From Pseudoxanthomonas kalamensis DSM 18571 (GTDB lineage Bacteria > Pseudomonadota > Gammaproteobacteria > Xanthomonadales > Xanthomonadaceae), in contig NZ_PDWQ01000002.1 of NCBI RefSeq assembly GCF_010211745.1, positions 186,001-250,000 on the forward strand: 64,000 nt of DNA, written 5' to 3'. Below, in pieces: positions 5,877 to 20,699 of the stretch (position 1 is its first letter; every line of letters begins with the position of its first letter). Position numbers and translations under genes: made by a program. A model generated the notes under the pieces. That model did no database searches and was not told the DNA's origin. It saw only the letters and a program-made list of their open reading frames with translations.

Positions 5877-5895
5877 GGCCGAAAAGCCCTGGCCG

Positions 5896-8109
5896 CTACA
5901 GGTCGATGCCGAAACCGACACCCGCCGACTTTTCGCTGCCGCTGAAAGCGCCGCCGAGGCTGAACGTCGCGGTCTTGCCGATGCGCTTGCCATAGCCCAC
6001 CGACAATGCGCTCTCGCCTCCCTGCCAGCCGGCGCCGACCGCGATCCGTCCACGCGGGCTCTGCGTGCCGGCAGCGTTGATCGCCATGTTCAGCATCGCG
6101 CTGCCCATCGCACCCTGGCGGTCGATCCGCCGGTCCTGCTGCCCCAGACGGCGTTCGACCTGGTCGAAACGATCATCCAGCGCATCCAGCCGTCCGTTGA
6201 TGGCCGACGGATCGAAACCGGTCAATGCCGCGACCTGCGTATCGGTATAGGCATTGGCCGCGCTCAGCGTGCTCGCGTCGCCATTGTCAGCATAGGTTTC
6301 CGCCGCCGCCTTCGTGTCGGAATCGCCGGCATCCGCATAATCCTGAGCGGAAGCCAGCGTGGCTGCATCCCCCGTATCGGCATATGTCCGGCTGGCGGCA
6401 GCCGTCGCCGCATCACCATTGTCGGCAATGGCCTGCACCTCCGGCTCGGAAAGCCCCGTCGTCAAACCAGCTATCTGCGTGTCGGTGTAGGCATAGGCAT
6501 CGACCAATGCGGCCTGCAATTGGCTCAGATTGACCGCATCGGTGGCCTCGGTTCCGGCGGCGACATAGGTAATCTGGGTCAGGCTGCTGGAACTACCTAC
6601 CGACAGCGTGCCCTCGCGATCGGCCACCGCACCATAGCCGATAGCAGTGCTGTAGTCCGCCTCGGCCCGCGCGTTCACCCCGGACGCACTGCTGTAATCG
6701 CCCAGCGCCACCACGCCCGCACCCATCGCCACCGCACTAGTGCCGGCGGCATAGCCCGTCTCGCTGCTGGCGTCAAGAATCCCGTCACCATCGGCATCGA
6801 AGTCCGCATTGATGGAGCCGCTGTCATCCCTGTCCCACCACCCCGTCACCGTCACGCTGCCGTTTCCGGCAGCTGCGCTCACTGTTCCGAATGCACTACT
6901 GCGTTCGCCGCTGGCTATACTGTAGCTGCCGAACGCGTTGCTGGAATCTCCGCTGGCCGTGTTGTGAAGGCCGAACGCGTTGCTGGAATCTCCGCTGGCC
7001 TCGTTGCTATAGCCGAACGCGCCGCTGAATTCTCCACTGGCCTCGTTGCTATAGCCGAACGCGCCGCTGAATTCTCCACTAGTCTCGTTGCTAAAGCCGA
7101 ACGCACTGCTAGAAACACCGCTGGCCGTGTTGCGAAGGCCAAACGCGCTGCTGGAATATCCGCTGGCCTCGTTGCTATAGCCGATTGCAGTGCTGTAGTC
7201 CGCCTCGGCCCGCGCGCTCACCCCGAACGCGCTACTGTAATCGCCCAGCGCCACCACACCCGCACCTACCGCCACCGCACTGGTGCCGGCGGCATAGCCC
7301 GTCTCGCTGCTCGCGTCAAGAATCCCGTCGCCATCGGCATCGAAGTCCGCATTGATGGCGCCGTCGCCATTCCTGTCCCACCAGCCCGCCACCGCCACGC
7401 TGCCGTTTCCGGCGGCTGCGCTCACTGTTCCGAATGCGCTACTGCGTTCGCCGCTGGCTATGCTGTAACTGCCGAACGCGTTGCTGTAATCGCCGCTGGC
7501 TTTGCTGTAACTGCCGAACGCACTGCTGGAACCTCCGCTGGCCGTGTTGCGATAGCCGAACGCACTGCTGGAACCCCCGCTGGCCGTGTTGCTATTGCCG
7601 AACGCATTGCTGGCGCTGCCCCCGGCCGTGTTGCTGATTCCGAACGCATTGCTGGCGCTGCCCCCGGCCTGGTTGTTGTAACCGAATGCGTTGTTCCGCG
7701 CGTCGGTCGCCTGATTGTTGAAACCGAAAGCCGAACTGGACAACCCGCTGGCCGTGTTACGCGCACCGACGGCGGAGGCATCCTGGGAAGCGGTCTGGTT
7801 GAAACTGCCGATGGCCACCGACCGAAGCCCATCGGCTTCATTGGCGTAGCCCACGGCACTGGACGATGCCCCGGTCGCAAGGTTGTAGTTGCCCAACGCC
7901 ACCGCCACGGTTCCTGAGGCGGAATTGTTCTGCCCGTAGGCGCTTGCCGAAAGATCGCAGGTCGTGTTGTCGGTTCCGTCCTCGTTGCCCCGATCTGTAC
8001 TGCCGGCATCCGGGCAAGGCGCATCCACCGCCCACGCCGGCGCGGAAAAGCCCAAGGCCGCGAGAATTGCAAAGACCAATGGCGCGGGATATCGCAGTCG
8101 TATCTTCAT
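5896..8109 (-). CDS. Trimeric autotransporter adhesin (YadA-like)
   Basis: This is a surface adhesin of 737 residues. A signal peptide (about 1-28, cleaving after PAWA) is followed by a YadA-type head of 14-residue SxAxGxxNxASG repeats. At 245-265 and 426-446 the head is interrupted by acidic loops (DRNGDGAI, DADGDGIL) that look like calcium-binding loops. The neck motif ATDAVNLSQL is near 520-530, a YAD-rich coiled-coil stalk spans about 535-650, and a YadA membrane anchor fills the last 70-100 residues. The head contains an internal duplication of 181 residues. ATG 8109 was preferred over 8115 because AAGGG then sits 8 nt upstream. It ends the minus-strand exported-protein run and faces the lipoprotein gene with an 18-bp gap. 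Confidence 0.9.
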   Translation of the reverse strand: MKIRLRYPAPLVFAILAALGFSAPAWAVDAPCPDAGSTDRGNEDGTDNTTCDLSASAYGQNNSASGTVAVALGNYNLATGASSSAVGYANEADGLRSVAIGSFNQTASQDASAVGARNTASGLSSSAFGFNNQATDARNNAFGYNNQAGGSASNAFGISNTAGGSASNAFGNSNTASGGSSSAFGYRNTASGGSSSAFGSYSKASGDYSNAFGSYSIASGERSSAFGTVSAAAGNGSVAVAGWWDRNGDGAINADFDADGDGILDASSETGYAAGTSAVAVGAGVVALGDYSSAFGVSARAEADYSTAIGYSNEASGYSSSAFGLRNTASGVSSSAFGFSNETSGEFSGAFGYSNEASGEFSGAFGYSNEASGDSSNAFGLHNTASGDSSNAFGSYSIASGERSSAFGTVSAAAGNGSVTVTGWWDRDDSGSINADFDADGDGILDASSETGYAAGTSAVAMGAGVVALGDYSSASGVNARAEADYSTAIGYGAVADREGTLSVGSSSSLTQITYVAAGTEATDAVNLSQLQAALVDAYAYTDTQIAGLTTGLSEPEVQAIADNGDAATAAASRTYADTGDAATLASAQDYADAGDSDTKAAAETYADNGDASTLSAANAYTDTQVAALTGFDPSAINGRLDALDDRFDQVERRLGQQDRRIDRQGAMGSAMLNMAINAAGTQSPRGRIAVGAGWQGGESALSVGYGKRIGKTATFSLGGAFSGSEKSAGVGFGIDL
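6640..6960 (-). repeat. Copy B of the 543-bp-offset duplication in the adhesin head
   Basis: This segment is a near-identical copy of 7183-7503, offset by 543 bp (181 codons, in frame). Both encode the module running from the YSTAIGY-like head repeat through the acidic DxDGDG loops and the AAAGNGSV segment. Small differences (for example ADNGDG-type versus DDSGS in the first loop) show that the copies have diverged. It looks like unequal crossing-over within the gene. Ends are approximate. Confidence 0.8.
7011..7094 (-). repeat. Tandem 42-bp head repeats (two almost identical units)
   Basis: Units 7011-7052 and 7053-7094 are almost identical and each encodes one 14-residue head repeat (GAFGYSNEASGEFS). 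Similar but more diverged 42-bp units extend on both sides through the adhesin head. The high identity suggests recent gain or loss of units, so repeat number may vary between strains. Confidence 0.75.
7183..7503 (-). repeat. Copy A of the 543-bp-offset duplication in the adhesin head
   Basis: Partner of 6640-6960. This copy encodes the N-terminal acidic-loop module (residues 245-265, with DRNGDG followed by DADGDG). Confidence 0.8.
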
Positions 8110-8396
8110 ATTCATTTCCCTTCGGTTCGTATCGTGTTGTGGGCGACCCAATGACGCATGCACGCCTCTAGGGTTCGGTCGTGCAATGGAACAACTTCCG
8201 GATCAGGGCACGGCATGCATGCGCCACGCCAGGCCCGTGCTGGTCATTCGCTTGCTGTTGTTATCGCTTTTGCAACCGCCGTTGCACTTGCTGCCAAAGA
8301 AACCGCCGATGCAGCCATGGCGAAGCCGCAAGCAAACCGCATGGTTGCTGCGCATGACCCATCCTTGATGCCACGACGGATGTCTGGCTTCATTGA
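8110..8396 (-). other. Long leader of the adhesin gene with possible small or decayed ORFs
   Basis: This is 287 nt without a clear gene, between a sigma-motif promoter (8397-8428) and the adhesin start. Two overlapping small minus-strand frames exist. One runs 8355-8203 (50 codons, cysteine- and glycine-rich, with AAGGA 7 nt before its ATG and its start 42 bp from the -10 element, close to the 46-50 bp of the other regulon genes). The other runs 8342-8244 (32 codons, with a hydrophobic alanine-rich signal-like core). They could be a short exported peptide, a frameshifted remnant of one, or just a long untranslated leader. I cannot choose between these. Confidence 0.35.
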
Positions 8397-8428
8397 GAAC
8401 ATTCGACAAATCACTACAAAGCGGGCCA
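8397..8428 (-). promoter_or_regulatory. Predicted ECF-sigma promoter (copy 1, upstream of the adhesin)
   Basis: On the minus strand TGGCCCGCTT (8428-8419), a 12-bp spacer and TCGAATGTTC (8406-8397) match the bipartite motif found at four other sites in this region. The adhesin start is 288 bp further on, much farther than the 46-50 bp at the other four sites. Inferred to be read by the sigma factor encoded at 18193-18747. Confidence 0.6.
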
Positions 8429-8500
8429 CCGCAGTGACAAAAGGTCAGTGATCGGCCCGATCACCATCCCGGACTGTCCGGCTTCTGCAGCGCACCCCAG

Positions 8501-9565
8501 CTATTTGCAGGGTGTGTCGTCCGGGACCGGCAGGCCACGCTTGCGTGCGAATTCACGCATTTCCTCGGCGAGTTGCTCGCACGACATTTCGCCGCGCATC
8601 GCCCGGCGACCGATGTCCGTGGATTCCTCGATGCCCTGGGTGGTAAACGCAGTGACCAATGGGTAGCTACCGGTATCGAAGCTGCGCTGCTGCATGCGGA
8701 AGTCCAGCAGCTGGCAGGTGATGTCGCCGCCGTCCGTGTCGGCCCCCTCGTGCACGACGTAGCGGGCCACGCGGTTGACCTGGGCCAGGTAGTCCTTGAA
8801 CAACCCCGAGCAGAATCCGAGCCAAGGCTGCTCGGTCGGCACGGTGCTGGGCACGTTGTCGTACCACAGCGTCATCGTGCTGCCTTCGTAAGCAGTCCCG
8901 CGCATGTCGCTGGTATTCGGAACCGGCGTGGCCATCGCCGTCGGCGGGGTGTTCGCGACACTACGCAGGAATTCGTTCATGTTGCCGTAGTCCAGCGACC
9001 AGTTGGTCGCACCCGGAGTCGCATCGCCGCCGGCCTGGATGCAGGCTTTACCGTATTCGACCGATTGTCCGCACATCAGCGCGTTGCCGGCACCGCGCAG
9101 TACGGCGAATTCGTAGGTGACGCCGGGAATGGCCTGCCCGCCCATCGCCTGCCTTATGCTCTCGAGGTCGAACAGGCCGATGCTGCCATCGGCAGTATTG
9201 ACGTAATAGTTGATTTCGCCGTTGGCGAGGTGACTATCGACATGCTCGCGAATGGCCAGGTCGAATTTGTAGATGCCAATCGGTTCGTCCGGATTGGGCG
9301 AAAAGCTGCTGGCAGCGGCAAATGCCTCGCGGTAGCTGCGCATCGCTGCATCGTTCGGGTCGACACCCTCACCCGCGCCGTCCGTATCCGTCGCCGAAGC
9401 TGATGCAGAGTCGTCCGTGCTCGCAAGCAGGGTCGGGCGGTGTTCCGGATCCCCAAGCCAATCACGCACGCCGGCAGGCAACGGAATCACCCCGGTCCAT
9501 GCCAGTGCCATAGCACCAACGAGCAATGCGCCGGAGCCAAGCACGATGGCGAGGCCACGCCTCAC
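8501..9565 (-). CDS. Membrane-anchored protein of unknown function
   Basis: This is a 354-residue protein with one N-terminal hydrophobic segment (about 4-24) that could be a signal anchor, then a Ser/Asp/Thr-rich linker (about 47-70) and a periplasmic-type domain rich in Tyr and Asn with about six Cys. I recognise no family. The start is GTG at 9565, which overlaps the stop of a 20-codon reading frame as GTGA, so translation may be coupled. It belongs to the minus-strand exported-protein run, 172 bp after the gene at 9738, with no sigma-motif promoter of its own; it may depend on read-through or a separate promoter. Confidence 0.7.
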   Translation of the reverse strand: MRRGLAIVLGSGALLVGAMALAWTGVIPLPAGVRDWLGDPEHRPTLLASTDDSASASATDTDGAGEGVDPNDAAMRSYREAFAAASSFSPNPDEPIGIYKFDLAIREHVDSHLANGEINYYVNTADGSIGLFDLESIRQAMGGQAIPGVTYEFAVLRGAGNALMCGQSVEYGKACIQAGGDATPGATNWSLDYGNMNEFLRSVANTPPTAMATPVPNTSDMRGTAYEGSTMTLWYDNVPSTVPTEQPWLGFCSGLFKDYLAQVNRVARYVVHEGADTDGGDITCQLLDFRMQQRSFDTGSYPLVTAFTTQGIEESTDIGRRAMRGEMSCEQLAEEMREFARKRGLPVPDDTPCK

Positions 9566-9624
9566 GACCGCGTTCCCGTCACGATGCCACGGGTGGACAG
9601 GTTGCGGCCTTCATGTGTCTTCAT
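9562..9624 (-). CDS. Possible 20-residue leader peptide coupled to the next gene
   Basis: An ATG at 9624 is preceded by a strong AGGAG at 7-nt spacing and opens a 20-codon frame (MKTHEGRNLSTRGIVTGTRS). Its TGA overlaps the GTG start of the 354-residue gene as GTGA. The downstream GTG has only a weak ribosome binding site, so the small frame could carry ribosomes to it. The peptide is polar and has no signal sequence. It may be a coupling device or chance. Confidence 0.4.
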   Translation of the reverse strand: MKTHEGRNLSTRGIVTGTRS

Positions 9625-9737
9625 CGAAATTCTCCTGCCCACCGACGCAAGTTGCATCGCCGAGTGGAACTGCCACAGTGATCGCATCCCCTGCCGACAC
9701 CCCATGTGACCCGGGACACGCGATATCAACCGTCCAT

Positions 9738-10598
9738 CTAGCGGGATCGGGGCATCCATGCAGGGTTGCCGTACACGACCCTGCCGCCGGCATCGAAGGT
9801 GAACACCTGCCCTTCGGACACGACCCCGGCGTCGTTCACGAAAAAGACGTAACCGAGATGGTTGTCCTCGGTACCTGCATCGTCGCGGGCCCTGATGCCG
9901 GCGATCAGCGTGTAATAGCGGTTGGTTTCCAGGTTCAGGGGCTGCGTCACCTGACGGCGCGCCAGCGTTGCCGAGCCCAACGGGGTGCGAACCGAAATGC
10001 GCTCGGCGCGCGAATGTTCGAGTACGGCATTGATCGTCACGAGCTGCCCCGGCGCCAGCCCTCCGGCAACGTTGGACACGCCAGCGCCCTCGACATGAGC
10101 CGATTCCCAGGCCGGCGTCTGCGACTGCGACCTTCCGATCACCGCCGTCGAGTGGGAGACGCCGGACAGCCAGCCGGACAGCCAGCTCGAGCTGCGAGCG
10201 ACCGGCCGCCCCCGCTCCAGCCTGAAAAGGACCGCATCGTCGAAGCCCCAGCGCATCCGACCCCGGTTGCTGACCTTCGCACCGATGGAAAATGCCTGAA
10301 TCTTGTGGTTCTTGATCTTCGCCGCCGGCACGGCCAACCCGCTGATGGCGAGGTTGAAGTCCGGGTCGGTGCGCGTTCGCACGTGTACCACGGCAGGCGA
10401 GGCGTCTTCGGGCGAAGTGGACTGCGTCGGCGGTGCCGGCTTCAGTTCACTGGAAATCTGCCGACCCGCCAATGGCTTGCTTTTCAACACCGGCTTTACG
10501 GCAGGCGATTTTTCCTGTGCACTGGCGAACACGGGCAACAGCAGCGCCAGGATCGTCGCCAGAAAGCAAACCTGGGTTCGGGACTGCATGGATTCCAT
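9738..10598 (-). CDS. Exported protein with a CARDB-like region, unknown function
   Basis: This is a 286-residue predicted secreted protein. MESMQSRTQ is followed by a hydrophobic core and a cleavage-like FASA/Q near residue 28, then a Lys/Pro-rich linker. The mature part contains a CARDB/APHP-like beta-sandwich stretch (FNLAISGLAVP to AFSIGAKVSNRG), a pattern also seen in the exported protein at 14200. The ATG at 10598 is supported by AGGAGGAG upstream. It lies 34 bp after the lipoprotein gene at 10633, so it is probably in the OmpA-lipoprotein operon. Function unknown. Confidence 0.72.
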   Translation of the reverse strand: MESMQSRTQVCFLATILALLLPVFASAQEKSPAVKPVLKSKPLAGRQISSELKPAPPTQSTSPEDASPAVVHVRTRTDPDFNLAISGLAVPAAKIKNHKIQAFSIGAKVSNRGRMRWGFDDAVLFRLERGRPVARSSSWLSGWLSGVSHSTAVIGRSQSQTPAWESAHVEGAGVSNVAGGLAPGQLVTINAVLEHSRAERISVRTPLGSATLARRQVTQPLNLETNRYYTLIAGIRARDDAGTEDNHLGYVFFVNDAGVVSEGQVFTFDAGGRVVYGNPAWMPRSR

Positions 10599-10632
10599 TC
10601 GACTCCTCCTGCGCCTCCAGTCGGGCACCTGT

Positions 10633-11229
10633 CTATTTGCGGTACTTGGCGATCAACGCGTTCGCCACCTTCTGTGCGTTTTCTCCGGCCGTCTTGCGGT
10701 CGGTCACCGTCACCCTCTTGTTGGCGGCGCCGAAGACCAGCGTGTCGAAACTCAGCCGGAAATACCGGTCGTAGTCCGGGTTGTAGATGAACAACCAGCC
10801 CCGCGGCTTGTGCATGGCCAGAACGTTGTCACCGGTCGCATCCGGCACGGCCGACAGCAGCCCGGTCTGGTCCTTGCGCATGTCGTCGATTGCACGCCGG
10901 ACTTCGGCTCGGGCCATCTCGCCGGTACGGAAAAGCAGCGGGCTTTTGCTGCCATCGACCAGGTTGATCACATAGCGGCAACCATCCGCTTCAACATTGC
11001 CCGCCGGGATGGACAGCGCAGCCGCGACCTCTTCGGTGGAGAGGAACGGGCAAGCCCCTTCGGCCAGCGAGAACAGGTCGGAGTAGTCACCACTTTGCGG
11101 ACGCGCTGCGCCATCGCTCCCGACATCTGCAACCTTGGCGGGGGACACGTCCGCCTCTGGCGTGGCCTGCTTGCCGCAGGCCAGCAACGATCCGAACAGC
11201 AACAGGGCAAGCAGGAGTTTGGTCTTCAT
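10633..11229 (-). CDS. Lipoprotein of unknown function
   Basis: This is a 198-residue predicted lipoprotein: MKTKLLLALLLFGSLLAC has a classical lipobox (LLAC, Cys18). The mature part has ACPFLSTEEVAAAL followed by a second Cys (DGCRYVI), a pattern seen in small lipoproteins whose paired cysteines may form a disulfide, and it ends with a Lys-rich helix. It lies 34 bp behind the OmpA-domain gene and 34 bp before the next exported protein, so all three probably share the promoter at 12452-12483. No enzymatic motif is visible. Confidence 0.75.
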   Translation of the reverse strand: MKTKLLLALLLFGSLLACGKQATPEADVSPAKVADVGSDGAARPQSGDYSDLFSLAEGACPFLSTEEVAAALSIPAGNVEADGCRYVINLVDGSKSPLLFRTGEMARAEVRRAIDDMRKDQTGLLSAVPDATGDNVLAMHKPRGWLFIYNPDYDRYFRLSFDTLVFGAANKRVTVTDRKTAGENAQKVANALIAKYRK

Positions 11230-11263
11230 GTCGACTCCGTGGTCCTGAAGTTAAAGACAGGCA

Positions 11264-12406
11264 TCACTGCTTGACCAGTTCCACCCGCCGGTTCTGCGCG
11301 CGGCCGTCCTCGGTGTCGTTGCTGGCCACCGGCACGCTGCTGCCGACGCCTTGCGCGCTCAATCGCGTGGCGGCCACGCCTTGCGCAATCAGCGCCTTGC
11401 GCACACTGTCGGCGCGCTGCTGCGACAGCTTCATGTTGGTCGCCGCGTTGCCGGTGCTGTCGGTATGCCCGACCACCAGCAGCTTGAGCTGCGGTTGCTG
11501 GCCCATCAGGATCACGACCTGTTCCAGCGAGGCATCGGATTCGGCCTTCAGGCTGGCCTTGCCGGTATCGAAGAAAATTCCGTCCAGGGTAACCTTGCCG
11601 CTTGCGGCCAAGCCCGCGGCCAGCGCGTCGGCGGAAACCCCGACCATGCCGGTATCCATCGCCGCGCTTTCCAGCACGTGCACGTAGGCGATGCTCGGAT
11701 TCACCCCGACCGAGACATAGGCGGTTCCGCCGCCGTAACCGACCCTGCCGGTGAAATAGCGTACATCGCCGCCGATGCCGAGGTTCATGCCGTTGATCTC
11801 GCCCCAACCCGGCGAACCCTTGGTCGTCGAACCCGTAGTGCCGCAGTTTTCGCGTTTCACGCACTCGTAGTCCACCTGGAAGCCTTGCGCAACCAAGGCA
11901 TTGCGATAGTTGCTGATGACCTCGAAGGTCGAACGCCCCTTCGGGTTGTTGTATTTCAACCGGGTCAGGGTGCCTTCCAGGCGTTCGGTCAGGTTTACCT
12001 TGTCCTTCCAGCCGACGATGCGGTAGTACTCGTTGTAGTCGTCATACTTGCGCTCCTTGCGCTTGGATCCTTGGTACGGCGTGATCAGCGGGTGGTCCCC
12101 GCCCGGATCGACGGATGCGACCGCACCGCCAGCTGAATCCGAATAGCCGGCGCCCGAGCCGTCATCGTAAATCTCGACTTCCTGACCTTGCTGCCTGGCC
12201 AGCTTGATGCACTCCTCGTCCCCCAGCGCGCAGCGCGCGACCTTGCGCGACTGCTCGTCGACCTTCTGCTCGACTTCGCTCTTGGCGGCGTTTTCGGCGA
12301 TCTTCTTCAGCCGATCGAGCCAGCTCTGCGCCGACGCCGTGGATGGTGCGGCCAGCGCGATGGCGAACGGCAGCAGGAAGGCGGCAATACGGACACGGTG
12401 GTGCAT
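11264..12406 (-). CDS. OmpA-domain outer-membrane protein with a DUF4892-like N-terminal part
   Basis: This is a 380-residue exported protein. A signal peptide (MHHRVRI, cleaving after STASA near residue 27) precedes a charged helical segment (about 30-75), a middle region resembling DUF4892 (LEGTLTRLKYNNPKGRS, then a pair of Cys in YECVKRENCG), and a C-terminal OmpA domain (about 270-380) with TLDGIFFDTGKASL, VVGHTDSTGN and NRRVELV that should bind peptidoglycan. The upstream frame extension through MSVQAAF reads across the repeated promoter cassette and was rejected; the ATG at 12406 has GAGGA 7 nt upstream. It probably leads an operon with the lipoprotein and the exported protein downstream. 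Confidence 0.85.
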   Translation of the reverse strand: MHHRVRIAAFLLPFAIALAAPSTASAQSWLDRLKKIAENAAKSEVEQKVDEQSRKVARCALGDEECIKLARQQGQEVEIYDDGSGAGYSDSAGGAVASVDPGGDHPLITPYQGSKRKERKYDDYNEYYRIVGWKDKVNLTERLEGTLTRLKYNNPKGRSTFEVISNYRNALVAQGFQVDYECVKRENCGTTGSTTKGSPGWGEINGMNLGIGGDVRYFTGRVGYGGGTAYVSVGVNPSIAYVHVLESAAMDTGMVGVSADALAAGLAASGKVTLDGIFFDTGKASLKAESDASLEQVVILMGQQPQLKLLVVGHTDSTGNAATNMKLSQQRADSVRKALIAQGVAATRLSAQGVGSSVPVASNDTEDGRAQNRRVELVKQ

Positions 12407-12451
12407 GGCAGATTCCTCGGATCGTGGCGCGACCGCGAAGGCCGCTTGTAC

Positions 12452-12483
12452 AGACATTCGAAAATTCAGTGGGAAACAGGCCA
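12452..12483 (-). promoter_or_regulatory. Predicted ECF-sigma promoter (copy 2, before the OmpA-domain gene)
   Basis: Minus-strand TGGCCTGTTT (12483-12474), 12-bp spacer, TCGAATGTCT (12461-12452). The ATG is 46 bp downstream. The sequence from here to the start codon is nearly the same as in front of the genes at 14049 and 14787. Confidence 0.72.
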
Positions 12484-12510
12484 CGCTGGCGCGGCGGCAC
12501 TGTGTTCCGC

Positions 12511-13248
12511 TCAGGGATTGACCGGGGTGATCTCGCAGCCGCCGTAACGATAGCCACTACCGCCCGCTCCCCTGCTTCCGCTTACGGGAATCAGTTGGAT
12601 GGCGCGCTCACGACTTGTGTTCGGCTCGAGCACAAAGCTGACCAGGCTGCCCGGCGCTGGAGGCAAGGGTTGCCAACGACCCGTACCGCCGGTCGAACTC
12701 CCATATTCGCCACGCGGCGAACGTACATAGGAATCCATGGCCACCAGGTTCCCTTCCCCCTCCACATAACACTCCAGCAACAACCAGTCTCTCGGGGCCG
12801 CAGGCAAGTTTGCCAGCAGGATCGAGCGAGCACCTGCAATCTGGCCATACGGCATGCCCTCGCTGGAGTTGTAATCGATTTGGCCGCCGCCACCCATCAT
12901 CATCAGTTGCGCACCGCTGGCTAGGTAAGGCTGCTGTGGCGCCAACAAGATGGAAGGCTTCAATGCACTGGCGCCGACATTCAGACCCCACGCGCGCAGC
13001 GTGGTCAATTTGCGGCGCTGGGTGGCGCTGAGCGGAGGTGGCTTGGGCAACATCAGCGTTTTCGGCGGCGCCGGCACCTTCACGCCGCTGCCGACGGCGG
13101 GAGGCCGGATCTGCGCGGACTGGATGGTCTGTGCCGCCCGTGGCGTGAGGGATTGCGGGCTCTTCACCACCTGCCCGAAGGCGCCCGGCAATGCCAGGGC
13201 AATAACGAGGGACAGCACTGTTGCGCAGATACGGACATGACGATGCAT
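12511..13248 (-). CDS. Exported protein, tandem paralogue of the next gene upstream
   Basis: This is a 245-residue predicted secreted protein. The signal peptide (MHRHVRICATVLSLVIALALPGAFG) is followed by a Pro/Lys segment (VKVPAPPKTLMLPKPPP), then SATQRRKLTTLRAWGLNVGASALKP and a region beginning RDWLLLECY, ending in GCEITPVNP. The same blocks in the same order occur in the gene at 13264, so the two are tandem duplicates. No known domain was recognised. TAGGAG lies 6 nt before the ATG. It follows the paralogue after 15 bp and has no sigma-motif promoter of its own, so it should be co-transcribed. Confidence 0.75.
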   Translation of the reverse strand: MHRHVRICATVLSLVIALALPGAFGQVVKSPQSLTPRAAQTIQSAQIRPPAVGSGVKVPAPPKTLMLPKPPPLSATQRRKLTTLRAWGLNVGASALKPSILLAPQQPYLASGAQLMMMGGGGQIDYNSSEGMPYGQIAGARSILLANLPAAPRDWLLLECYVEGEGNLVAMDSYVRSPRGEYGSSTGGTGRWQPLPPAPGSLVSFVLEPNTSRERAIQLIPVSGSRGAGGSGYRYGGCEITPVNP

Positions 13249-13263
13249 GGCGGACTCCTAGAC

Positions 13264-14049
13264 TCAGGGGTTGACCGGGGTGACTTCGCAGCCACCGAAG
13301 GTGGATACCGGCCTGCGCTTCAGCGTGATCGTGCGTTTGCTTTGCGTACTGGGCACCAACACGAAGCCGACGATTCCTCCCCCTGGCGGCACGTGCCGGG
13401 TATAGCCCCGGATCTGGTTGTCGTCGTACGCGCTGCCATGCCATGACCTTCCCTGCATGTAGGCAGGCGTCGGCGAGTTGGGATGCGTAACCGAAGCAGT
13501 GAGGTCAAAGCCGTCGGGATAATGGTAGCCATCGCCCGCCTCATAGCACTCCACCAGCAACCAATCCCTTGGCGTCGCGGGGATATCCTTGAAGATCACC
13601 ATCGAGTCGACGGCCAGGAGCTTGATCGAACCATAGGGCAGCCCCTCCTTGGAGGCATAGTCGATCGTGGTGCCGCGATCGCTGACCACGCTCATCACCG
13701 CCCCATTGGCCAAATAGGGTTGCTGCGGCGTGAGCAGATAGGACGGCTTCAATGCACTGGCACCGACATTGAGGCCCCAATCGCGCAGTGCGAGCAACTT
13801 GCGCCGCTGGGTGGCGCTGGGCGGCGGCGGCTTGGGCAGCGCCAGTGTTTTCGGCGGTGCCGGTACGCGCACGCCGCTGTGACTGGCGGGCAACTCGACC
13901 TGCGTCGAGCTGATCTGGCTGGACTGGATGGCGCGTGTCGCCTGCGGTGTGAGCGTCTTCTGCGGCAGCTGCTGGGCAATGGCACTGGCCGGCACTGCGG
14001 CAAGGGCAAGCGGCAGCAGGGTGATGGCGATGCGGGCATGACAACGCAT
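13264..14049 (-). CDS. Exported protein of unknown function (paralogue pair, first gene)
   Basis: This is a 261-residue predicted secreted protein with a signal peptide (MRCHARIAITLLPLALAAVPASAIA, cleaving near residue 25). It shares with the next gene a VRVPAPPKTLALPKPPP segment, QRRKLLALRDWGLNVGASALKPS, RDWLLVECYEAG and the C-terminal GCEVTPVNP. The constant Cys close to the C terminus may form a disulfide or an anchor point. The ATG at 14049 has GAGGAG 9 nt upstream; a longer frame starting at 14148 runs through the promoter cassette and was rejected. Confidence 0.77.
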   Translation of the reverse strand: MRCHARIAITLLPLALAAVPASAIAQQLPQKTLTPQATRAIQSSQISSTQVELPASHSGVRVPAPPKTLALPKPPPPSATQRRKLLALRDWGLNVGASALKPSYLLTPQQPYLANGAVMSVVSDRGTTIDYASKEGLPYGSIKLLAVDSMVIFKDIPATPRDWLLVECYEAGDGYHYPDGFDLTASVTHPNSPTPAYMQGRSWHGSAYDDNQIRGYTRHVPPGGGIVGFVLVPSTQSKRTITLKRRPVSTFGGCEVTPVNP

Positions 14050-14096
14050 GGCGCGAACTCCTCGGGTCGTGGCGCGACCGCGAAGGCCGCTTGTAC

Positions 14097-14127
14097 AGAC
14101 ATTCGAAATTCGGCGGGAAACGGGCCA
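14097..14127 (-). promoter_or_regulatory. Predicted ECF-sigma promoter (copy 3, before the paralogue pair)
   Basis: Minus-strand TGGCCCGTTT (14127-14118), 11-bp spacer, TCGAATGTCT (14106-14097), with the ATG 48 bp downstream. It is part of the same repeated cassette of about 80 bp as copies 2 and 4. Confidence 0.72.
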
Positions 14128-14199
14128 AGCGAGCGAAAACGAAGGCATGCGCGCACCTTCATCTGCGCGCGGGAATCCGGCTCCCGGCGCTTCCCGCGA

Positions 14200-14787
14200 T
14201 CAGCGACCGGATTGCAGCAGGCGGATCACCTCCGTGCTGCTCAGGGTCTTCTGGTTGTTGCCGGGGTTGCAGTCGTCGTTGGCCTTGTTGCCGTCAGCGT
14301 AGATGTCCGGGTCGTAGGTGATGGACGCGGTCACGGTATTGGCGAGATTGTTGTAGGGCGCCCAGCGTTCCTGGTCATCGACCTGGCCGCGCTCCTGCCC
14401 GGGCTCGAGCGAGGTGAAGTCGATGCCGGGCAAATTGCGGCCGTTGACGCGAATGGTCAGGCTCTGCTGACCCGTACCGGACGACCAGGCGGTCTTGCCC
14501 AGGTTGCGTACCGTGGCGAATACATCGAAATAGTATTTCCCGTCGGCGGTACGGCGCAGGCGCTGCACGCCCACTTCGGTAATGGCCGGGTCCGGTCCCA
14601 GACATTCGCCAGGCTTGAACAATGGCGGCCTTTTGAGCACGTTGGGCGGGGTCACCTGCTTGGCTGGAATGACAGGCTTGACTGGCTTGACTGGCTTGAC
14701 CAGGGTGGGCTGACTAACCTGGGCGATGGCCACCTGGGCCATGGCCAACGGCAGCAGGACGGTGGCGATGCGGATATGACGATGCAT
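14200..14787 (-). CDS. Exported CARDB-like protein with a KPV-repeat linker
   Basis: This is a 195-residue predicted secreted protein. The signal peptide (MHRHIRIATVLLPLAMAQVAIA) is nearly the same as in the neighbouring exported proteins. A short (VKP)n linker (VKPVKPVKPVIPAK) precedes a beta-sandwich-like domain (EVGVQRLRRTADGKYYFDVFATVRNLG) reminiscent of CARDB/APHP cell-adhesion folds, with two cysteines (C62, C176 approximately). It has its own sigma-motif promoter 48 bp upstream and lies 93 bp downstream of the kinase gene. A role in the envelope or in adhesion is only inferred. Confidence 0.76.
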   Translation of the reverse strand: MHRHIRIATVLLPLAMAQVAIAQVSQPTLVKPVKPVKPVIPAKQVTPPNVLKRPPLFKPGECLGPDPAITEVGVQRLRRTADGKYYFDVFATVRNLGKTAWSSGTGQQSLTIRVNGRNLPGIDFTSLEPGQERGQVDDQERWAPYNNLANTVTASITYDPDIYADGNKANDDCNPGNNQKTLSSTEVIRLLQSGR

Positions 14788-14834
14788 GGCGCGAGTTCCT
14801 CGAATCGTGGCGCGGCTGCAAAGACCGCTTGTCC

Positions 14835-14865
14835 AGACATTCGAAGTTCGACGGGAAACGGGCCA
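14835..14865 (-). promoter_or_regulatory. Predicted ECF-sigma promoter (copy 4, before the CARDB-like gene)
   Basis: Minus-strand TGGCCCGTTT (14865-14856), 11-bp spacer, TCGAATGTCT (14844-14835), with the ATG 48 bp downstream. It lies in the 93-bp gap behind the kinase gene, so the exported gene can be expressed apart from the kinase. Confidence 0.72.
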
Positions 14866-14880
14866 CGCCGGTGCGCCGTG

Positions 14881-17670
14881 TCAGGTGCCGATGGCCTCCC
14901 TGAGCTTGCCGAACAGCCGTCGTTGCGCTGGGACGTCGCGTGCGATCACCTCCCAGCCTTCAGCACGCAGCGCTTCGCAGACCTCCCGGTCGGGTCCCTT
15001 GCACTTGCCGGAAATCGCCTTGATCAGCACCGTCACGTAATTCGAGGTGTCGCGGTGGTCCTTGCGCAGTGCGGACAGCGCGCCGAGCACCATGGCGGAG
15101 GCTTCCTCGGGCCGTCCGAGCTGTGCCATCGCCACGCCGCGTTCGGCATCGAGGACCAGCGATTCGGCCGTGTCCTTGCCGTTCGCGTCGAGATAGGCGG
15201 GCCGCGCGGCGAGATATTGCGCATCGGCGGCCCGTGGATCGCCGCTGCGCATCAGCAGGCGCGCCAGTGCGATCTGCAGTTGTGCGAGCTGTCGGCTGCC
15301 GGCGGGCTTGCTCTTGCGCATGCGTGCGACGAGGTCGCGCATGAGCGCGATGGCCTCGGGAAGCTGGCCGGTGTCGGCGAGGTGCGCGACCTTGTGGCGG
15401 GTGAGGGTCAGCACCCGGGCATTGTCGTTTCCGTAGATGGCGCGCATCCGCGGCAGCAGGTCCTCGACCGCGGCGTTGGCCTCGTCCTTCCGGCCCATGC
15501 GCAGCAGGATCCGGATGCGCACCTCCCCCAGATTGACGGCACGCACGGACGCCTTGCCCTCGATCGAGACCGCATCCGCGATGCCGCGGTCGATCGTGGC
15601 CAGCGCTTCGTCCAGGCGGTTGAGCTGGTACTGGCTCAGGGCCCTGACATTCAGCGCATTGATGGAAGTGACCGTCGGGCCAGCATAGAAACGGGCGTGG
15701 CGTTCCAGGATCCGGTCCGTCAGCGCCAATGCATCGTCGAAGCGCCCGAATCCCTCCAGTGCCAGCGCATACCGCATCAGGAAGGTATCGTACTCGTCCG
15801 CCGACAGCGACTGTTCCAAGTCCGGCTGGCGCCAGAGTTCGTCCTTTTTCGCGACCGATGCCGCAGTCTTGCCCGCGTTCCACAGGATGTCCGATTCGCG
15901 CACGGCAATGGCCGTGCAGAACCGCTTGCCGGCGCCGGGACACAACGCCCATGCGCGCGCATTCGCCGCTTCGGCCTCGTCGTAGCGGGAAGCGCCGATC
16001 AGGGCGGATGTCAGCCACGACACCATGGACAGGTGATCGCCGCTGCCAGGGCGAGCATGGGAGACAGCATTCTCGATTTCGGCGAGGCGCTTGATTTCCG
16101 CTGCCCAGTCCGTGCGTGGCTTGAGGACCAGTCGCGCAGCGATCAGTCGGGCTTCCCGGAGCAGGCTGTCGATGTCGCCTGCGGTGGGAGGCGCGAGACG
16201 ATTGGCTTCCTCCAGCAGGGCGACCGCCTCCTTGTTGCGGCCCGCCTGCGAGTGGATGGTCGCCAGCGAGACGAGTACGTCGGCAAGCGTCGAGGGATCG
16301 TCGGCCAGTTGCCGGTGCGCTTCGGATTCGGCGTGTGCCAGCAATTGCTTCCGCGGAATGTTGGTCGGCATGTTCCTGGAAGGAGAAAGCGACAGCAAGA
16401 GTTCCTGCAGGAATTTCAGTTGCCGTTGCGCCGAGGCTTCCGCCGTGGTCGCCTGTTCGACGGCGGCAAGAGCGGCGGCGCGCTGTACCAACGACATCCA
16501 GATGCCTCCGACCAAGGCGAGCAGCAAGGCGGTCGTCAGCGAAGCTGCCAGTCGGTGGCGCGCAATGAACTTGCCGAAGCGGTACCAGCCGCTGTCATGA
16601 TGCGCGGCCACCGGTCTGCCAGCCTGCCACGCGCGCAGATCTGCGCCCAGTTCGGCCGCGCCGGGATAGCGCCGGACCGGTTCACGGGCGAGCGCCTTTT
16701 TCAGGATCGCACCAAGGTCACCGACCAGTAGCCTGCGCCGCGCGCGATCGTTCTCACGATCCAGCAGCACGGCAGGATCGCGGCATTCGGCGTCGGCAAC
16801 GTCTTCGGGGAATTGTGGCGGCTTTCCGACCAACAACTGGTGCAAAAGACTGCCTAGGCCGTAGACGTCGGTGGCGGTGGTAATGGCTCCGCCATGCAGC
16901 TGTTCCGGTGCCGCGTAGCGCGGTGTGAGGGCATAGATACCGGTACCGGTCAGCTCGCTGGCGCCCTCTTCCAGCATCCGCGAAATGCCGAAATCCAGCA
17001 GCACCACCCGGCCTTCGTGATCGACCAGGACGTTGGACGGCTTGATGTCGCGATGGATGACCAAGTGCCGATGGGCGTATTCCACCGCGTCGCAGACTTG
17101 CAGGAACAGCTCGACGCGCTGTGCCGTATCCAGCCCCTGCTCGCGACACCAGGTTTCGATGTCGATGCCTTCGACCAGCGCCATCGCGAACCAGGGCGTG
17201 CCGTCCTCGGCCACGCCGGCGTCCAGCACCGGCGCGATGCCGGGATGGCTCAATCGCACAAGGATGTCGATCTCGCGGGCGAAGCGCGCCTTGCCCTCGT
17301 CCGTGGCTGCGGCCAGCGACAGCAGTTTCACTGCCGCCCTCTGCCCTGCCGGCGGCTGCAGCGAGCGGGCGCGATACACCACCGACATGCCGCCCTTGCC
17401 CAGCAGATCGGTCAGCAGCCAGCGCCCCAGTTGGCGGCCAGACAAGGCGGCGGTTTCACCAGCGCTGGCGGCCAGCGACGGCAACGGCGAATCCAGCACG
17501 CTGGGACGATGCTCGGTCGCCAGCATCCGCTCGGCCAGCGCCCGCACCTCGGACGGCACGTCGGGCGCATACAGTTCGGCCTGCCGCTCGGCCTCGGGCA
17601 GATCCATCAGCCGCTCGACCAATGTCAGCGCGGCCTGCCAATGCTTCGACGGTTCCCGTGTGTCCGTCAT
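14881..17670 (-). CDS. Membrane Ser/Thr protein kinase with a repeat-rich C-terminal region
   Basis: This is a 929-residue Hanks-type kinase. The N-terminal 80 residues are helical, and the kinase domain spans about 81-345: glycine loop GKGGMS (91-96), Lys115, catalytic HRDIKPSN (206-213), DFG (226-228) and APE (254-256) are all present, so it should be active. A single transmembrane helix lies at about 373-394. The large C-terminal part (400-929) consists of helical TPR-like repeats and would be periplasmic, acting as sensor. The ATG at 17670 has GAGGG upstream. It lies 39 bp after the small secreted gene, which follows an ECF sigma gene, matching the kinase-sigma pairs EcfK/PknS of Xanthomonas citri and EcfP/PknT of Vibrio. 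The likely role is to phosphorylate that sigma factor in response to an envelope signal. Confidence 0.93.
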   Translation of the reverse strand: MTDTREPSKHWQAALTLVERLMDLPEAERQAELYAPDVPSEVRALAERMLATEHRPSVLDSPLPSLAASAGETAALSGRQLGRWLLTDLLGKGGMSVVYRARSLQPPAGQRAAVKLLSLAAATDEGKARFAREIDILVRLSHPGIAPVLDAGVAEDGTPWFAMALVEGIDIETWCREQGLDTAQRVELFLQVCDAVEYAHRHLVIHRDIKPSNVLVDHEGRVVLLDFGISRMLEEGASELTGTGIYALTPRYAAPEQLHGGAITTATDVYGLGSLLHQLLVGKPPQFPEDVADAECRDPAVLLDRENDRARRRLLVGDLGAILKKALAREPVRRYPGAAELGADLRAWQAGRPVAAHHDSGWYRFGKFIARHRLAASLTTALLLALVGGIWMSLVQRAAALAAVEQATTAEASAQRQLKFLQELLLSLSPSRNMPTNIPRKQLLAHAESEAHRQLADDPSTLADVLVSLATIHSQAGRNKEAVALLEEANRLAPPTAGDIDSLLREARLIAARLVLKPRTDWAAEIKRLAEIENAVSHARPGSGDHLSMVSWLTSALIGASRYDEAEAANARAWALCPGAGKRFCTAIAVRESDILWNAGKTAASVAKKDELWRQPDLEQSLSADEYDTFLMRYALALEGFGRFDDALALTDRILERHARFYAGPTVTSINALNVRALSQYQLNRLDEALATIDRGIADAVSIEGKASVRAVNLGEVRIRILLRMGRKDEANAAVEDLLPRMRAIYGNDNARVLTLTRHKVAHLADTGQLPEAIALMRDLVARMRKSKPAGSRQLAQLQIALARLLMRSGDPRAADAQYLAARPAYLDANGKDTAESLVLDAERGVAMAQLGRPEEASAMVLGALSALRKDHRDTSNYVTVLIKAISGKCKGPDREVCEALRAEGWEVIARDVPAQRRLFGKLREAIGT

Positions 17671-17709
17671 CGATCGCCCTCGATCATTGCCCCAGACTGT
17701 CGCGTGGAT

Positions 17710-18105
17710 TCAATCTTTGTACAACCAGGTCCCGGAGCCATCGCATGGCTGCGCCTCGACCTTGCATGTATGCTGTTTCCCAAGTGCCCGAAACGTACTG
17801 CATTCAATCCGCTTCGAATACGGATTGGCAAGCTTCCATTTGGAAAAATCCGGCCCATATTTCTCCTTGGCCTTCTTCTTCCAGTCATCGATGGCAGAAT
17901 CCTTTGCCCGGTCTTTTATCCGGAATCCTCCGGTCTTGGAAAAGCCGAAGATCGGATCGACCACGCAGCCGTTCGAGCTGGTCGCTGGCCGCACCGGTGC
18001 CGGTCGTTTGGTCGCCTTGCCGTCGGCAAGCACTGCATCGGTCTGGCCGACGGCAATGGCGCAAATAGCAACCAGAACCAGGCGACGGAAGAAAGTTACG
18101 CTCAT
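17710..18105 (-). CDS. Small secreted cysteine-containing protein between sigma factor and kinase
   Basis: This is a 131-residue predicted periplasmic protein. MSVTFFRRLVLVAICAIAVG and a cleavage-like VLA/D near residue 28 are followed by a Lys-rich mature chain with four cysteines (two of them in CSTFRALGKQHTC). No family was recognised. It sits between the sigma gene and the kinase gene on the same strand and has its own copy of the sigma motif 50 bp upstream. That position makes it a candidate ligand or modulator of the kinase's periplasmic part, or simply a first regulon member. The start at 18105 was chosen over the longer frame (18141) because the signal peptide begins there. Confidence 0.72.
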   Translation of the reverse strand: MSVTFFRRLVLVAICAIAVGQTDAVLADGKATKRPAPVRPATSSNGCVVDPIFGFSKTGGFRIKDRAKDSAIDDWKKKAKEKYGPDFSKWKLANPYSKRIECSTFRALGKQHTCKVEAQPCDGSGTWLYKD

Positions 18106-18154
18106 TCGAATCTCCGGTTCGGACCGGATGGCGAATTGCATCCGGACCCAACAA

Positions 18155-18186
18155 AGACATTCGATGCGCGGTGCAAAAGCGGGCCA
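18155..18186 (-). promoter_or_regulatory. Predicted ECF-sigma promoter (copy 5, before the small secreted gene and kinase)
   Basis: Minus-strand TGGCCCGCTT (18186-18177), 12-bp spacer, TCGAATGTCT (18164-18155), with the ATG 50 bp downstream. It starts 7 bp past the sigma gene's stop. The spacer and leader differ from copies 2-4, so the two conserved boxes are not just part of the duplicated cassette. It would place the kinase under control of the sigma factor (positive feedback). Confidence 0.7.
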
Positions 18187-18192
18187 TGCCCA

Positions 18193-18747
18193 CTACTCCA
18201 TCAATGTCTGCAGCGCCGCTCGGGCCGCCGCCCACTCACGCTTCAGCGTGCGCTCGGACCGACCCAGCATCGGCGCCAGCTCGGCATAATCCAGCCCCGC
18301 GAAGAAACGCAGTTCGACCAGCTCGCGCCTCGCTGGGTCGATTTTCTGCAGCTGGTCCAGCGCCGCGTCCAGGGCCAGCACTTCCTCGGGACGGGTCTCC
18401 TGCAGCAGGTTGTCCTCCAGCTCGACCCGAACCAAGTCACCGCCATGGCGTCCGGTCTGCGCCCTGCGCGCATGATCGACCACAATCCAGCGCATCGCCT
18501 GCGCGGCCGTGGCATAGAAATGCTTGCGGCTCTCCAGATTCAGCGACTCGTTGCCGCACAGACGCAGGTAGGCCTCGTTGACCAGCACGGTCGGGGTCAG
18601 CGTGTCCTGCCCACCGCGGGCGATACCGCGGGCAATCTTGCGCAACTCGGCGTACAGCAACCCACAGACCCGGGACAGACTGTCCGGATCATCGGTGGCG
18701 GCCTGCCGCAATAACAGGGTGATGTCGCCGGTGGCGTTCTCGTCCAT
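18193..18747 (-). CDS. ECF sigma factor of the TIGR02999 / kinase-associated type
   Basis: This is a 184-residue sigma-70 family factor. Region 2 (about 8-90) has LLYAELRKIARGIAR and NEAYLRL followed by HFYATAAQAMRWIVVDHARR; region 4 (about 122-180) has ELRFFAGLDYAELAPMLGRSERTLKREW, a typical helix-turn-helix. At the place of the acidic DAED motif of region 2.2 it has TPTV (T51, T53). In kinase-linked ECF factors such a threonine becomes phosphorylated and supplies the missing charge. There is no anti-sigma gene nearby. The ATG at 18747 (AGGA upstream) is preferred to the TTG one codon earlier. It is followed by the secreted gene and the kinase. Confidence 0.92.
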   Translation of the reverse strand: MDENATGDITLLLRQAATDDPDSLSRVCGLLYAELRKIARGIARGGQDTLTPTVLVNEAYLRLCGNESLNLESRKHFYATAAQAMRWIVVDHARRAQTGRHGGDLVRVELEDNLLQETRPEEVLALDAALDQLQKIDPARRELVELRFFAGLDYAELAPMLGRSERTLKREWAAARAALQTLME

Positions 18748-18928
18748 CAATTCCTGCCCGCTCTACCCCATGCCATTCGCGTCGCAGCCGGAGCCTCTTC
18801 CGGCCGCTCGTGACTACTGAAGCATATCGCAGCGGGATGCGCCCGAGGTCAGCGAAAACACAAAGACTTGCCTGAAATGCCGATGCGCTTCACAAACCGC
18901 CTTTCCTCAGCCGTACGCTGCAAACAAC

Positions 18929-19528
18929 TCAGGGAAACAGCATCTGCTTGTGCCAGGTACCACCATCATCTCGGTGATAACGCCAGCGCTCATGCAGACG
19001 GAATTCGGCGCCGTACCAGAACTCGATCGCCTGCGGCACCACCCGGTAGCCGCTCCAGCCCGATGGCCGCGGCACCGGCTTGCCCTCGAAACGGGCCTCG
19101 ACCTGCACCAGGTGCTGCTCGAATTCCTCACGCGAGCCTAGCGGCTGCGACTGATGCGAGGCCCAGGCACCGATCTGGCTCAGCCGCGGACGCGAGGCAA
19201 AATACGCGTCGGCTTCGGTATCCGAGACCGGCTCCACCCTGCCTTCGATCCGCACCTGGATGCCGGCCTCGCGCAAGGTGCGCCACAGGAACAGCAGCGC
19301 CGCTTGTGGATTCTGCGCCAGTTCGCGCCCTTTCTGGCTGCCGGTATGGGTATAGAAGACGAAACCGCGCGCGTCAAAAGCCTTCAACAGCACGATGCGC
19401 GCGGAAGGGCGCCCGTCCGCCGTGGCCGTCGCCACCGTCATTGCGTTCGGCTCGGCCTCGTGGCTAGCCTTGGCCTCCTCGAACAGTTCGGCAAAGGTCG
19501 TCAGGGCTTCCGTGTACAACTCGGTCAT
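18929..19528 (-). CDS. pdxH: Pyridoxamine 5'-phosphate oxidase
   Basis: This is an FMN-dependent cytosolic enzyme oxidising PNP/PMP to pyridoxal 5'-phosphate, the last step of vitamin B6 synthesis and salvage. The 199 residues match the family in length. Recognisable blocks are [29 protein letters not shown] (FMN site), RIEGRVEPV, the [14 protein letters not shown] segment and the C-terminal [18 protein letters not shown] signature. The start MTELYTEAL at 19528 was chosen; the longer frame upstream overlaps the divergent kinase gene. The 38-bp gap to that gene must hold both promoters. Confidence 0.96.
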
Positions 19529-19566
19529 GGCGGTTGGCCTGCGGGGGTTTGCGCTATTGTCGCGCG

Positions 19567-20418
19567 ATGACGTCCGCAACGCACCCACCTTCCGCTGCGG
19601 GGTTCCCCGCCGCGCTGGTCGAGTCCCTGCTGCGCGAACTGCCGACGGCGGCCGACGGACACGCACCCGTGTTCGGCATCAGCGGCCTGCAGGGCAGCGG
19701 CAAGTCCACGCTAGCCGCGCAACTGGCCGCAGCCGCAACCGGCGCCGGTCTGCGCACGGCGATGGTGTCGATCGACGACTTCTACCTGACCCGTGCGGAG
19801 CGGCTGCAGCTGGCGCAACAGGCGCATCCGTTGCTGGCTACCCGGGGGCCGCCCGGAACGCACGATCTGACCCTGGCGATGGACACCCTGGGAGCCCTCC
19901 GCATGCGGCAACCGGCCAGCCTGCCGCGATTCGACAAGCTGGCCGACGACCGCCTGCCGCCTGAGCGCTGGCCGCGCATGGATGCGGGTGTCGATCTGGT
20001 GATCTTCGAGGGCTGGTTCCTCGCCACCCCGGCCGAACCGGATCCAGCGCTGGCCACGCCATTGAACGCACTGGAGCGCGACGAGGACGCCGACGGTCGC
20101 TGGCGGCACCATTGCAACACGGCGCTGGCGCGCGACTATCCGCCGCTGTGGAACCTCATCGACCGCCTGCTGTTCCTGCAACCACCAGGTTTCGAGGTCG
20201 TACCGGAATGGCGCTGGCAGCAGGAACAGGGCCTGCAGGCCGCCGATCCGTCACGTCCGGGGATGTCGCAGGCGCAGCTCCAGCGCTTCGTGCAGCACTA
20301 CGAACGGGTCAGCCGGCAGGCCTTGCGCACCCTGCCGGCCTTGGCCGACCGCGTCGTCCGCCTAGACGCGCGACGGCGACCGCTGGACGACGGAGGCCTT
20401 ACGCCACCACGAAGGTGA
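19567..20418 (+). CDS. P-loop kinase, D-glycerate 3-kinase-like
   Basis: This is a 283-residue cytosolic P-loop kinase related to plant/fungal glycerate 3-kinase and the phosphoribulokinase/uridine kinase group. Walker A is GLQGSGKST (40-48). [24 protein letters not shown] (the substrate loop) and FEGWFLA are the family hallmarks. It probably phosphorylates glycerate to 3-phosphoglycerate. A TATTGT box ends 6 nt before the ATG and there is no ribosome binding site, so the mRNA may be leaderless. Its last 20 bp overlap the end of the convergent dodecin gene. Confidence 0.82.
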
Positions 20419-20602: not shown

Positions 20603-20662
20603 TCGGTGTCTCCTTACGTGTGGCGGCGATGCGCCGGGGCAGCCAGCCTAATCCGTTGCCTG

Positions 20663-20690: not shown

Positions 20691-20699
20691 CCCTGCAGC

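What the first reader, a model, noticed from the sequence alone, without database searches (positions are those of the whole stretch)
8397..18186. Five copies of one bipartite promoter-like motif across the exported-protein cluster
TGGCCYGYTT, then 11-12 bp, then TCGAATGTYT occurs five times, always on the minus strand: 8397-8428, 12452-12483, 14097-14127, 14835-14865, 18155-18186. At four sites the start codon follows after 46-50 bp. The spacing and two-box layout look like an ECF sigma promoter, and the sigma gene is in the same cluster. The copies at 8397 and 18155 have different spacers and flanks, so the conservation is not only due to duplication.
Basis: seen in the sequence. Interest (0 to 1): 0.85.

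Follow-up and report, generated by a model that had tools for sequence, protein, structure and literature searches.

The report
Kinase-linked sigma factor's promoter set
Five copies of one two-part promoter-like sequence stand before groups of exported-protein genes, and similar copies stand in the same places beside the same sigma-factor and kinase genes in several related bacteria, so this looks like a small self-contained switch for remodelling the cell surface.

Summary
TGGCC-N17/18-CGAATGT occurs five times, all on the minus strand; the 8397 copy ends TTC, not TYT. In the 3.03-Mb genome its five exact matches all lie in this 10-kb cluster. The cluster encodes an ECF sigma factor (TIGR02999), a Hanks-type kinase with C-terminal TPRs, and OmpA-domain, YadA-type and other apparently exported proteins. 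The sites head every likely transcription unit except the sigma gene.

Conservation supports the promoter reading. A matrix from the five sites alone put its top hit before an exported cluster gene in 6 of 20 related loci (6 of 9 with the closest sigma factors). A relaxed pattern, shaped after seeing some sites, gave 30 hits against 7.25 in shuffles; 21 of 30 precede a frame with a hydrophobic N-terminus, against 98 of 6000 random positions. The -10 box varies between lineages, roughly with sigma residue 72, with exceptions. Thr53 lies where ECF43 sigma factors are phosphorylated. Best reading: a phosphorylation-activated ECF43-type regulon for envelope proteins. No transcript data were available. 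New member of a known kind, with a promoter and cargo I found undescribed in the papers searched.

The parts
18193..18747 (-). ECF sigma factor gene, 184 aa, TIGR02999 / PF07638; Thr53 in TPTV-LVNEA; no copy of the motif upstream
   Evidence: no motif hit upstream
18155..18186 (-). promoter copy P1: -35 TGGCCCGCTT 18177-18186, -10 TCGAATGTCT 18155-18164; six bases separate it from the sigma gene's stop codon
   Evidence: same position just after the ECF gene in L094, L043-L045, L104 and, as TCGAGTG, L095
17710..18105 (-). 131-aa protein with hydrophobic N-terminus (likely signal peptide), no Pfam family; homologues between ECF and kinase genes in L094 and L095, none found by tblastn in L036-L046
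14881..17670 (-). Hanks-type Ser/Thr kinase, 929 aa, one likely transmembrane segment (about 372-396), C-terminal TPRs; probably cotranscribed from P1
14835..14865 (-). promoter copy P2: -35 14856-14865, -10 14835-14844
14200..14787 (-). 195-aa protein with signal-like N-terminus and Lys/Pro repeats, no Pfam family above cut-off
14097..14127 (-). promoter copy P3: -35 14118-14127, -10 14097-14106
13264..14049 (-). 261-aa protein with signal-like N-terminus, paralogue of the next gene (by eye)
12511..13248 (-). 245-aa protein with signal-like N-terminus, paralogue of 13264-14049, 15-base gap, likely the same transcript
12452..12483 (-). promoter copy P4: -35 12474-12483, -10 12452-12461
   Evidence: orthologous site before OmpA in 5 other genomes
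11264..12406 (-). OmpA-domain protein with signal-like N-terminus, 380 aa
10633..11229 (-). 198-aa protein with lipoprotein-like N-terminus (LLACGK, by eye), likely in the P4 transcript
9738..10598 (-). 286-aa protein with signal-like N-terminus (by eye), no Pfam family
8501..9565 (-). 354-aa membrane-anchored or exported protein; homologues behind OmpA in L037, L039-L041, L094, L095
8446..8466 (-). terminator-like hairpin with T-rich tail, between 8501-9565 and the next promoter copy; weak evidence (6 such sites in the region, shuffles mean 9.0)
8397..8428 (-). promoter copy P5: -35 8419-8428, -10 TCGAATGTTC 8397-8406
5896..8109 (-). YadA-type trimeric autotransporter adhesin (head repeats, stalk, anchor), 737 aa, start 287 bases after P5

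Best explanation
The five sites are promoters read by the ECF sigma factor encoded at 18193-18747. Inferred chain: the membrane kinase (14881-17670) senses an envelope signal through its C-terminal, probably periplasmic, TPR part; it phosphorylates the sigma factor at Thr53, perhaps at linker residues too, supplying the missing negative charge in region 2.2; the sigma factor then binds core RNA polymerase and transcribes units P1 (small exported protein + kinase), P2, P3, P4 (OmpA operon) and P5 (YadA adhesin). The sigma gene has no copy and the kinase lies behind one, so feedback would run through kinase dosage. Shown here: the sites, their exclusive clustering in this genome, the gene content and the conservation across genera. 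Inferred: recognition by this sigma factor, phosphorylation, and the envelope signal.
For: Five exact hits, all in the cluster, in 3.03 Mb. By gene order the promoters would cover all cluster genes except the sigma gene. Held-out matrix: top hit before an exported cluster gene in 6 of 20 relatives, P about 6e-7 against the random-position rate; 6 of 9 with sigma identity of 56% or more, 0 of 11 others. Relaxed pattern 30 hits vs 7.25 (sd 2.2, max 11, 20 shuffles), reversed control 4; 21 of 30 followed by an SD-ATG ORF with hydrophobic N-terminus vs 98 of 6000 random positions. L094 carries the motif before its 17710-like gene, its OmpA gene and its YadA gene. The -10 third base (A/T/G) goes with sigma residue 72 (E / A,T / T,S,V) in the 20 loci classed. 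[ST]PT replaces the acidic motif in all 21 aligned sigma factors, as a Thr motif does in ECF43 (passages of PMC13147305 and PMC8999054). No sigma-70-like promoter in 5700-19100 (0 found, shuffles 2.1).
Against: No transcript, binding or mutant data. In the held-out test 14 of 20 relatives did not give a cluster promoter as top hit, including 3 of the 9 with the closest sigma factors (L038, L040, L041); L038 has a relaxed-pattern site, L040/L041 have only CGTA-type boxes before OmpA although their sigma factors carry the Glu of the CGAATG class. In five relatives a looser pattern gave 27 genome-wide hits, only 8 in the cluster (reversed control 8), so exclusive clustering was shown in the own genome only. 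The relaxed pattern was shaped after seeing some sites. The residue-72 link follows phylogeny, was not corrected for it, and uses classes assigned by hand. At P5 the YadA start is 287 bases away. In X. citri the T51A variant of EcfK alone still works, so one-Thr activation is not the whole story there.
Confidence: 0.85

Rival explanations
1. The two boxes are read by another sigma factor of the same genome (for example a paralogue), and the adjacent ECF gene is only a neighbour.
For: The own genome holds a second match to this sigma factor at E 1e-20 or better (2 matches). Genomes without an adjacent close sigma gene (G246, G147, G076; genus g42, Arenimonas by contig-length match) show TGGCAC/GCGAT- or GCGT-like sequences before OmpA (by eye, not tested).
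Against: All exact sites of the own genome sit within 10 kb of this sigma gene; similar boxes accompany sigma-kinase pairs in other genera; the CGAATG box precedes OmpA in 6 of 9 genomes with the pair adjacent and 0 of 5 without (Fisher P 0.03).
Confidence: 0.08
2. The boxes are a bipartite binding site for a transcription factor rather than a sigma promoter.
For: Two conserved boxes with a variable spacer could also be an activator site.
Against: The boxes are neither direct nor inverted repeats of each other; the spacer fits -35/-10; the sites point into genes; no sigma-70-like promoter was recognised in the region; no transcription-factor family was among the cluster genes scanned.
Confidence: 0.04
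3. The copies are a dispersed repeat or leftovers of tandem duplication with no function.
For: Copies 12452, 14097 and 14835 share flanks, and genes 12511/13264 look like paralogues.
Against: 8397 and 18155 share only the boxes; similar boxes stand at orthologous positions in other genera while spacers and flanks differ; a two-mismatch site elsewhere precedes another apparently exported protein.
Confidence: 0.02

Closest known systems
EcfK-PknS of Xanthomonas citri (ECF43; passages of PMC13147305, and of PMC6653060)
   Same: ECF sigma factor beside a membrane Hanks-type kinase in Xanthomonadaceae; part of the acidic region-2.2 motif replaced, with a conserved Thr
   Different: EcfK controls a type VI secretion system; here the genes behind the motif are a YadA-type adhesin, an OmpA-domain protein and small exported proteins. 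EcfK reads QATE at the phosphosite, this one TPTV. None of the 8 places with the word promoter in PMC13147305 gives a target sequence.
EcfP-PknT of Vibrio parahaemolyticus (ECF43; passages of PMC8999054 and PMC8103513)
   Same: Sigma factor activated by Thr phosphorylation in region 2.2 (STTA) by a cognate kinase
   Different: Linked to polymyxin resistance; different lineage; its promoter was not available to compare
Trimeric autotransporter adhesins (YadA family)
   Same: Head, stalk and anchor domains in 5896-8109
   Different: Only one component here; what matters is its placement behind the promoter

Membership tests
STK-associated ECF sigma factors, group ECF43 | ECF sigma factor with sigma2 and sigma4 only, TIGR02999/PF07638-type | tested here: met
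   184 aa, TIGR02999 165 bits (cut-off 126), PF07638 148 bits; that ECF43 members belong to these families is recalled
STK-associated ECF sigma factors, group ECF43 | Hanks-type kinase gene in the neighbourhood | tested here: met
   14881-17670, PF00069; a kinase homologue near the ECF gene in 19 of 20 relatives, L043 being cut by its contig end
STK-associated ECF sigma factors, group ECF43 | Acidic DxxD of region 2.2 replaced by uncharged residues with Thr at the EcfK T51 position | tested here: met
   TPTV before LVNE; [ST]PT in all 21 aligned sigma factors; register taken from PMC13147305 passages, EcfK itself was not aligned
STK-associated ECF sigma factors, group ECF43 | Assignment by the published ECF43 model | not testable with these tools
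   The classification paper is not held
STK-associated ECF sigma factors, group ECF43 | Kinase phosphorylates the sigma factor and activates it | not testable with these tools
   needs biochemistry
ECF-type promoter | Two boxes 16-18 bases apart at a fixed distance before target genes | tested here: met
   17-18 bases between TGGCC and CGAATG; 45-49 bases to the start codon at 4 of 5 sites, 287 at the fifth
ECF-type promoter | Transcription starts just downstream and depends on the sigma factor | not testable with these tools
   no transcript data

The most novel reading that the evidence does not exclude
The ECF-kinase pair and its promoter form a portable surface-display cassette: the switch and promoter stay fixed in a lineage while the exported cargo behind the promoters (adhesins, OmpA-type proteins, small secreted proteins) is exchanged, the small exported protein made with the kinase acts on the kinase's outer TPR domain as a feedback ligand, and sigma residue 72 sets the lineage-specific -10 base.
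Probability: 0.3. Interest if true: 0.65.

Novelty: new member of a known kind. Interest (0 to 1): 0.52.

Why it matters
Only two ECF43-type pairs with known outputs came up in the papers seen. This gives a concrete promoter consensus, a compact predicted regulon of envelope and adhesin proteins, and natural promoter/sigma variants in Xanthomonadaceae, so promoter recognition and phospho-activation of this sigma class can be tested directly with reporters.

Tried and rejected
The family-wide scan of the short pattern (153 of 297 genomes with a match) was taken as mostly chance and not used. A strict scan of 27 loci, 16 of them outside Xanthomonadaceae, gave hits in three of those 16 (L052, L054, L056), taken as chance and not examined. 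The 27 hits of a looser pattern in five relatives include 19 outside the clusters; I did not examine these. OmpA orthologues without the adjacent sigma gene are only a partly clean control: none of five has a CGAATG box upstream (216-300 bases searched), but some show similar-looking boxes, and G312 has a 39%-identical ECF gene about 1 kb away. A C149 hit with two mismatches lies antisense to an ORF in what looks like an integron cassette array and is taken as chance. The leader before YadA is not unusually structured (280 bases, z 0.34), 5000-20000 has no Rfam match, and it stays unexplained. Solved structures gave one match, over residues 111-177 only, so residue 72 was not placed on a structure; that it lies in the loop reading the -10 element is recalled. 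Literature searches (listings only, apart from passages of four papers) showed no paper on this promoter or on an ECF43-controlled YadA/OmpA cluster; the classification paper and the first X. citri paper are not held, so a published motif cannot be excluded.

In one search, L040, L041, L100, L101, L107 and L158 were left out for lack of a classifiable site (L158's only hit was a CGAATG site away from the cluster) and L159 as a repeat of L046; L105 was classed by eye (site at 13319, outside the pattern).

Full report
OBSERVATION. The motif is present as described. One search finds four exact copies on the minus strand and none elsewhere in the window (shuffled expectation 0.00). The fifth, at 8397-8428, fits through TCGAATGT but ends TTC. 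Between TGGCC and CGAATG there are 17 or 18 bases. In the whole genome (3,031,349 bases in 160 contigs) TGGCCN{16,18}CGAATGT has five matches, all here; the reversed control has one. With up to two mismatches to the longer pattern at the two observed spacings only two more appear. One, at C94:364028-364057, ends its CGAATG 71 bases before the start of a 161-aa Pro/Lys-rich protein with a signal-like N-terminus, a plausible sixth target; the other looks like chance.

ANATOMY. The cluster reads leftwards from the sigma gene (18193-18747). Six bases after its stop codon comes copy P1, before a 131-aa exported-looking protein and the 929-aa kinase. P2 follows the kinase and precedes a 195-aa protein. 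P3 precedes a pair of paralogous proteins. P4 precedes an OmpA-domain protein and three further genes (a 172-base gap before the last). P5, after a terminator-like hairpin (8446-8466, where such sites are no commoner than in shuffles, 6 against 9.0), precedes a YadA-type trimeric autotransporter, 287 bases away. No copy precedes the sigma gene. The sigma factor is TIGR02999/PF07638. No sigma-70-like promoter was found in 5700-19100 (0, shuffled mean 2.1).

CONSERVATION. Leaving out repeats of the same genome, 20 loci were used: L036-L046, L094, L095, L100-L102, L104-L107. A kinase homologue is near the ECF gene in 19 of 20 (L043 ends), OmpA in 8, YadA in 6 and the 8501 gene in 6. A matrix from the window's five sites alone was run over the 20: the top hit lies directly before an exported cluster gene in six (L036, L037, L039, L042, L094, L095) and not in the other fourteen. 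The six are among the nine with sigma identity of 56% or more; the other eleven gave none (Fisher P 0.002; threshold chosen afterwards). L094 has copies before its 17710-like gene, its OmpA gene and its YadA gene. Genome-wide, TGGCMCN{14,18}CGAATG has 27 hits in five relatives, 8 of them in the clusters, against 8 for the reversed control; the other 19 were not examined.

WIDER CLASS. Reading upstream regions showed related boxes TG[GT]C[AC] and CG[ATG]ATG. This pattern, shaped after seeing some of the sites, has 30 hits in the 20 loci against 7.25 (sd 2.2, max 11) in 20 shuffles and 4 for the reversed pattern. Of the 30, 21 are followed within 130 bases by an SD-ATG reading frame with a hydrophobic N-terminus, against 98 of 6000 random positions. 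By my reading one of the 21 (L102:12303) lies inside the kinase gene and is probably chance, while two not counted (L094:10105, L046:13620) precede exported proteins that start at an internal ATG. L043 and L045 share one identical site, so not all hits are independent. In Pseudoxanthomonas (L043-L045) and L104 the box is CGTATG and one copy sits just after the sigma gene. Six further loci each gave at least one hit; L159 repeats L046's genome, L158's hit is away from the pair, and the CGGATG sites after the kinase in L154 and L155 have no start within 130 bases (in L154 a lipoprotein-like gene starts about 211 bases on).

SIGMA FACTOR. All 21 aligned sigma factors have [ST]PT before LV[NH]E. 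PMC13147305 (passages) says ECF43 members replace the acidic motif, consensus QTTA with a phosphorylated Thr; PMC8999054 (passages) says EcfP has STTA, its second Thr phosphorylated; Thr53 falls on that position. The same passages report further phosphosites in the EcfK linker and a working T51A variant, so Thr53 need not be the only site. Among 20 loci classed by hand by the third base of the -10 box, residue 72 is Glu in 8 of 8 CGAATG loci, Ala or Thr in 6 of 6 CGTATG loci and Thr, Ser or Val in 6 of 6 CGGATG loci. Other columns separate the classes nearly as well, phylogeny was not corrected, and L040/L041 (Glu, but CGTA-like boxes) were outside the 20 and go against it.

OMPA TEST. OmpA orthologues at E 1e-50 or better occur in 14 of 395 family genomes. 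The CGAATG box precedes OmpA in 6 of the 9 with the sigma-kinase pair adjacent (G000, G123, G332, G019, G171, G278, the last with OmpA split between contigs; not G164, G351, G158) and in 0 of 5 without a close sigma gene beside it (G011, G312, G246, G147, G076; Fisher P 0.03).

JUDGEMENT. The kind of system (kinase-activated, ECF43-type) is known; the promoter, its cargo and its variants did not come up in what I could search (limits).

Noticed in passing
window 8110-8396 (-): A 287-base stretch between promoter copy P5 and the YadA start; it contains a 50-aa ORF starting 44 bases after CGAATG and, in another frame from 8342, a signal-peptide-like reading of 32 codons. Possibly a small gene or a gene remnant.
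   Followed up: partly
L139 (own genome, contig C149), about 1-4300: Short ORFs separated by repeats that resemble integron attC sites (by eye), with a tyrosine-recombinase-like ORF at about 3132-4286: apparently a chromosomal integron cassette array.
   Followed up: no
L138:3473-3958 (-), own genome contig C94: Stand-alone 161-aa exported-looking Pro/Lys-rich protein behind a two-mismatch copy of the motif, with a composition like the window's 14200-14787 protein.
   Followed up: partly
L037 and L094: ORFs that read like groES and groEL lie near the sigma-kinase-OmpA-YadA cluster in both loci (by eye); none was seen among the window's called ORFs at 4000-22000.
   Followed up: no
L042 about 3762 (-): A TGTCACGTTT-N11-TCGTCTG site 37 bases before a gene with a signal-like start, resembling a different ECF promoter class (class recalled, not tested).
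   Followed up: no
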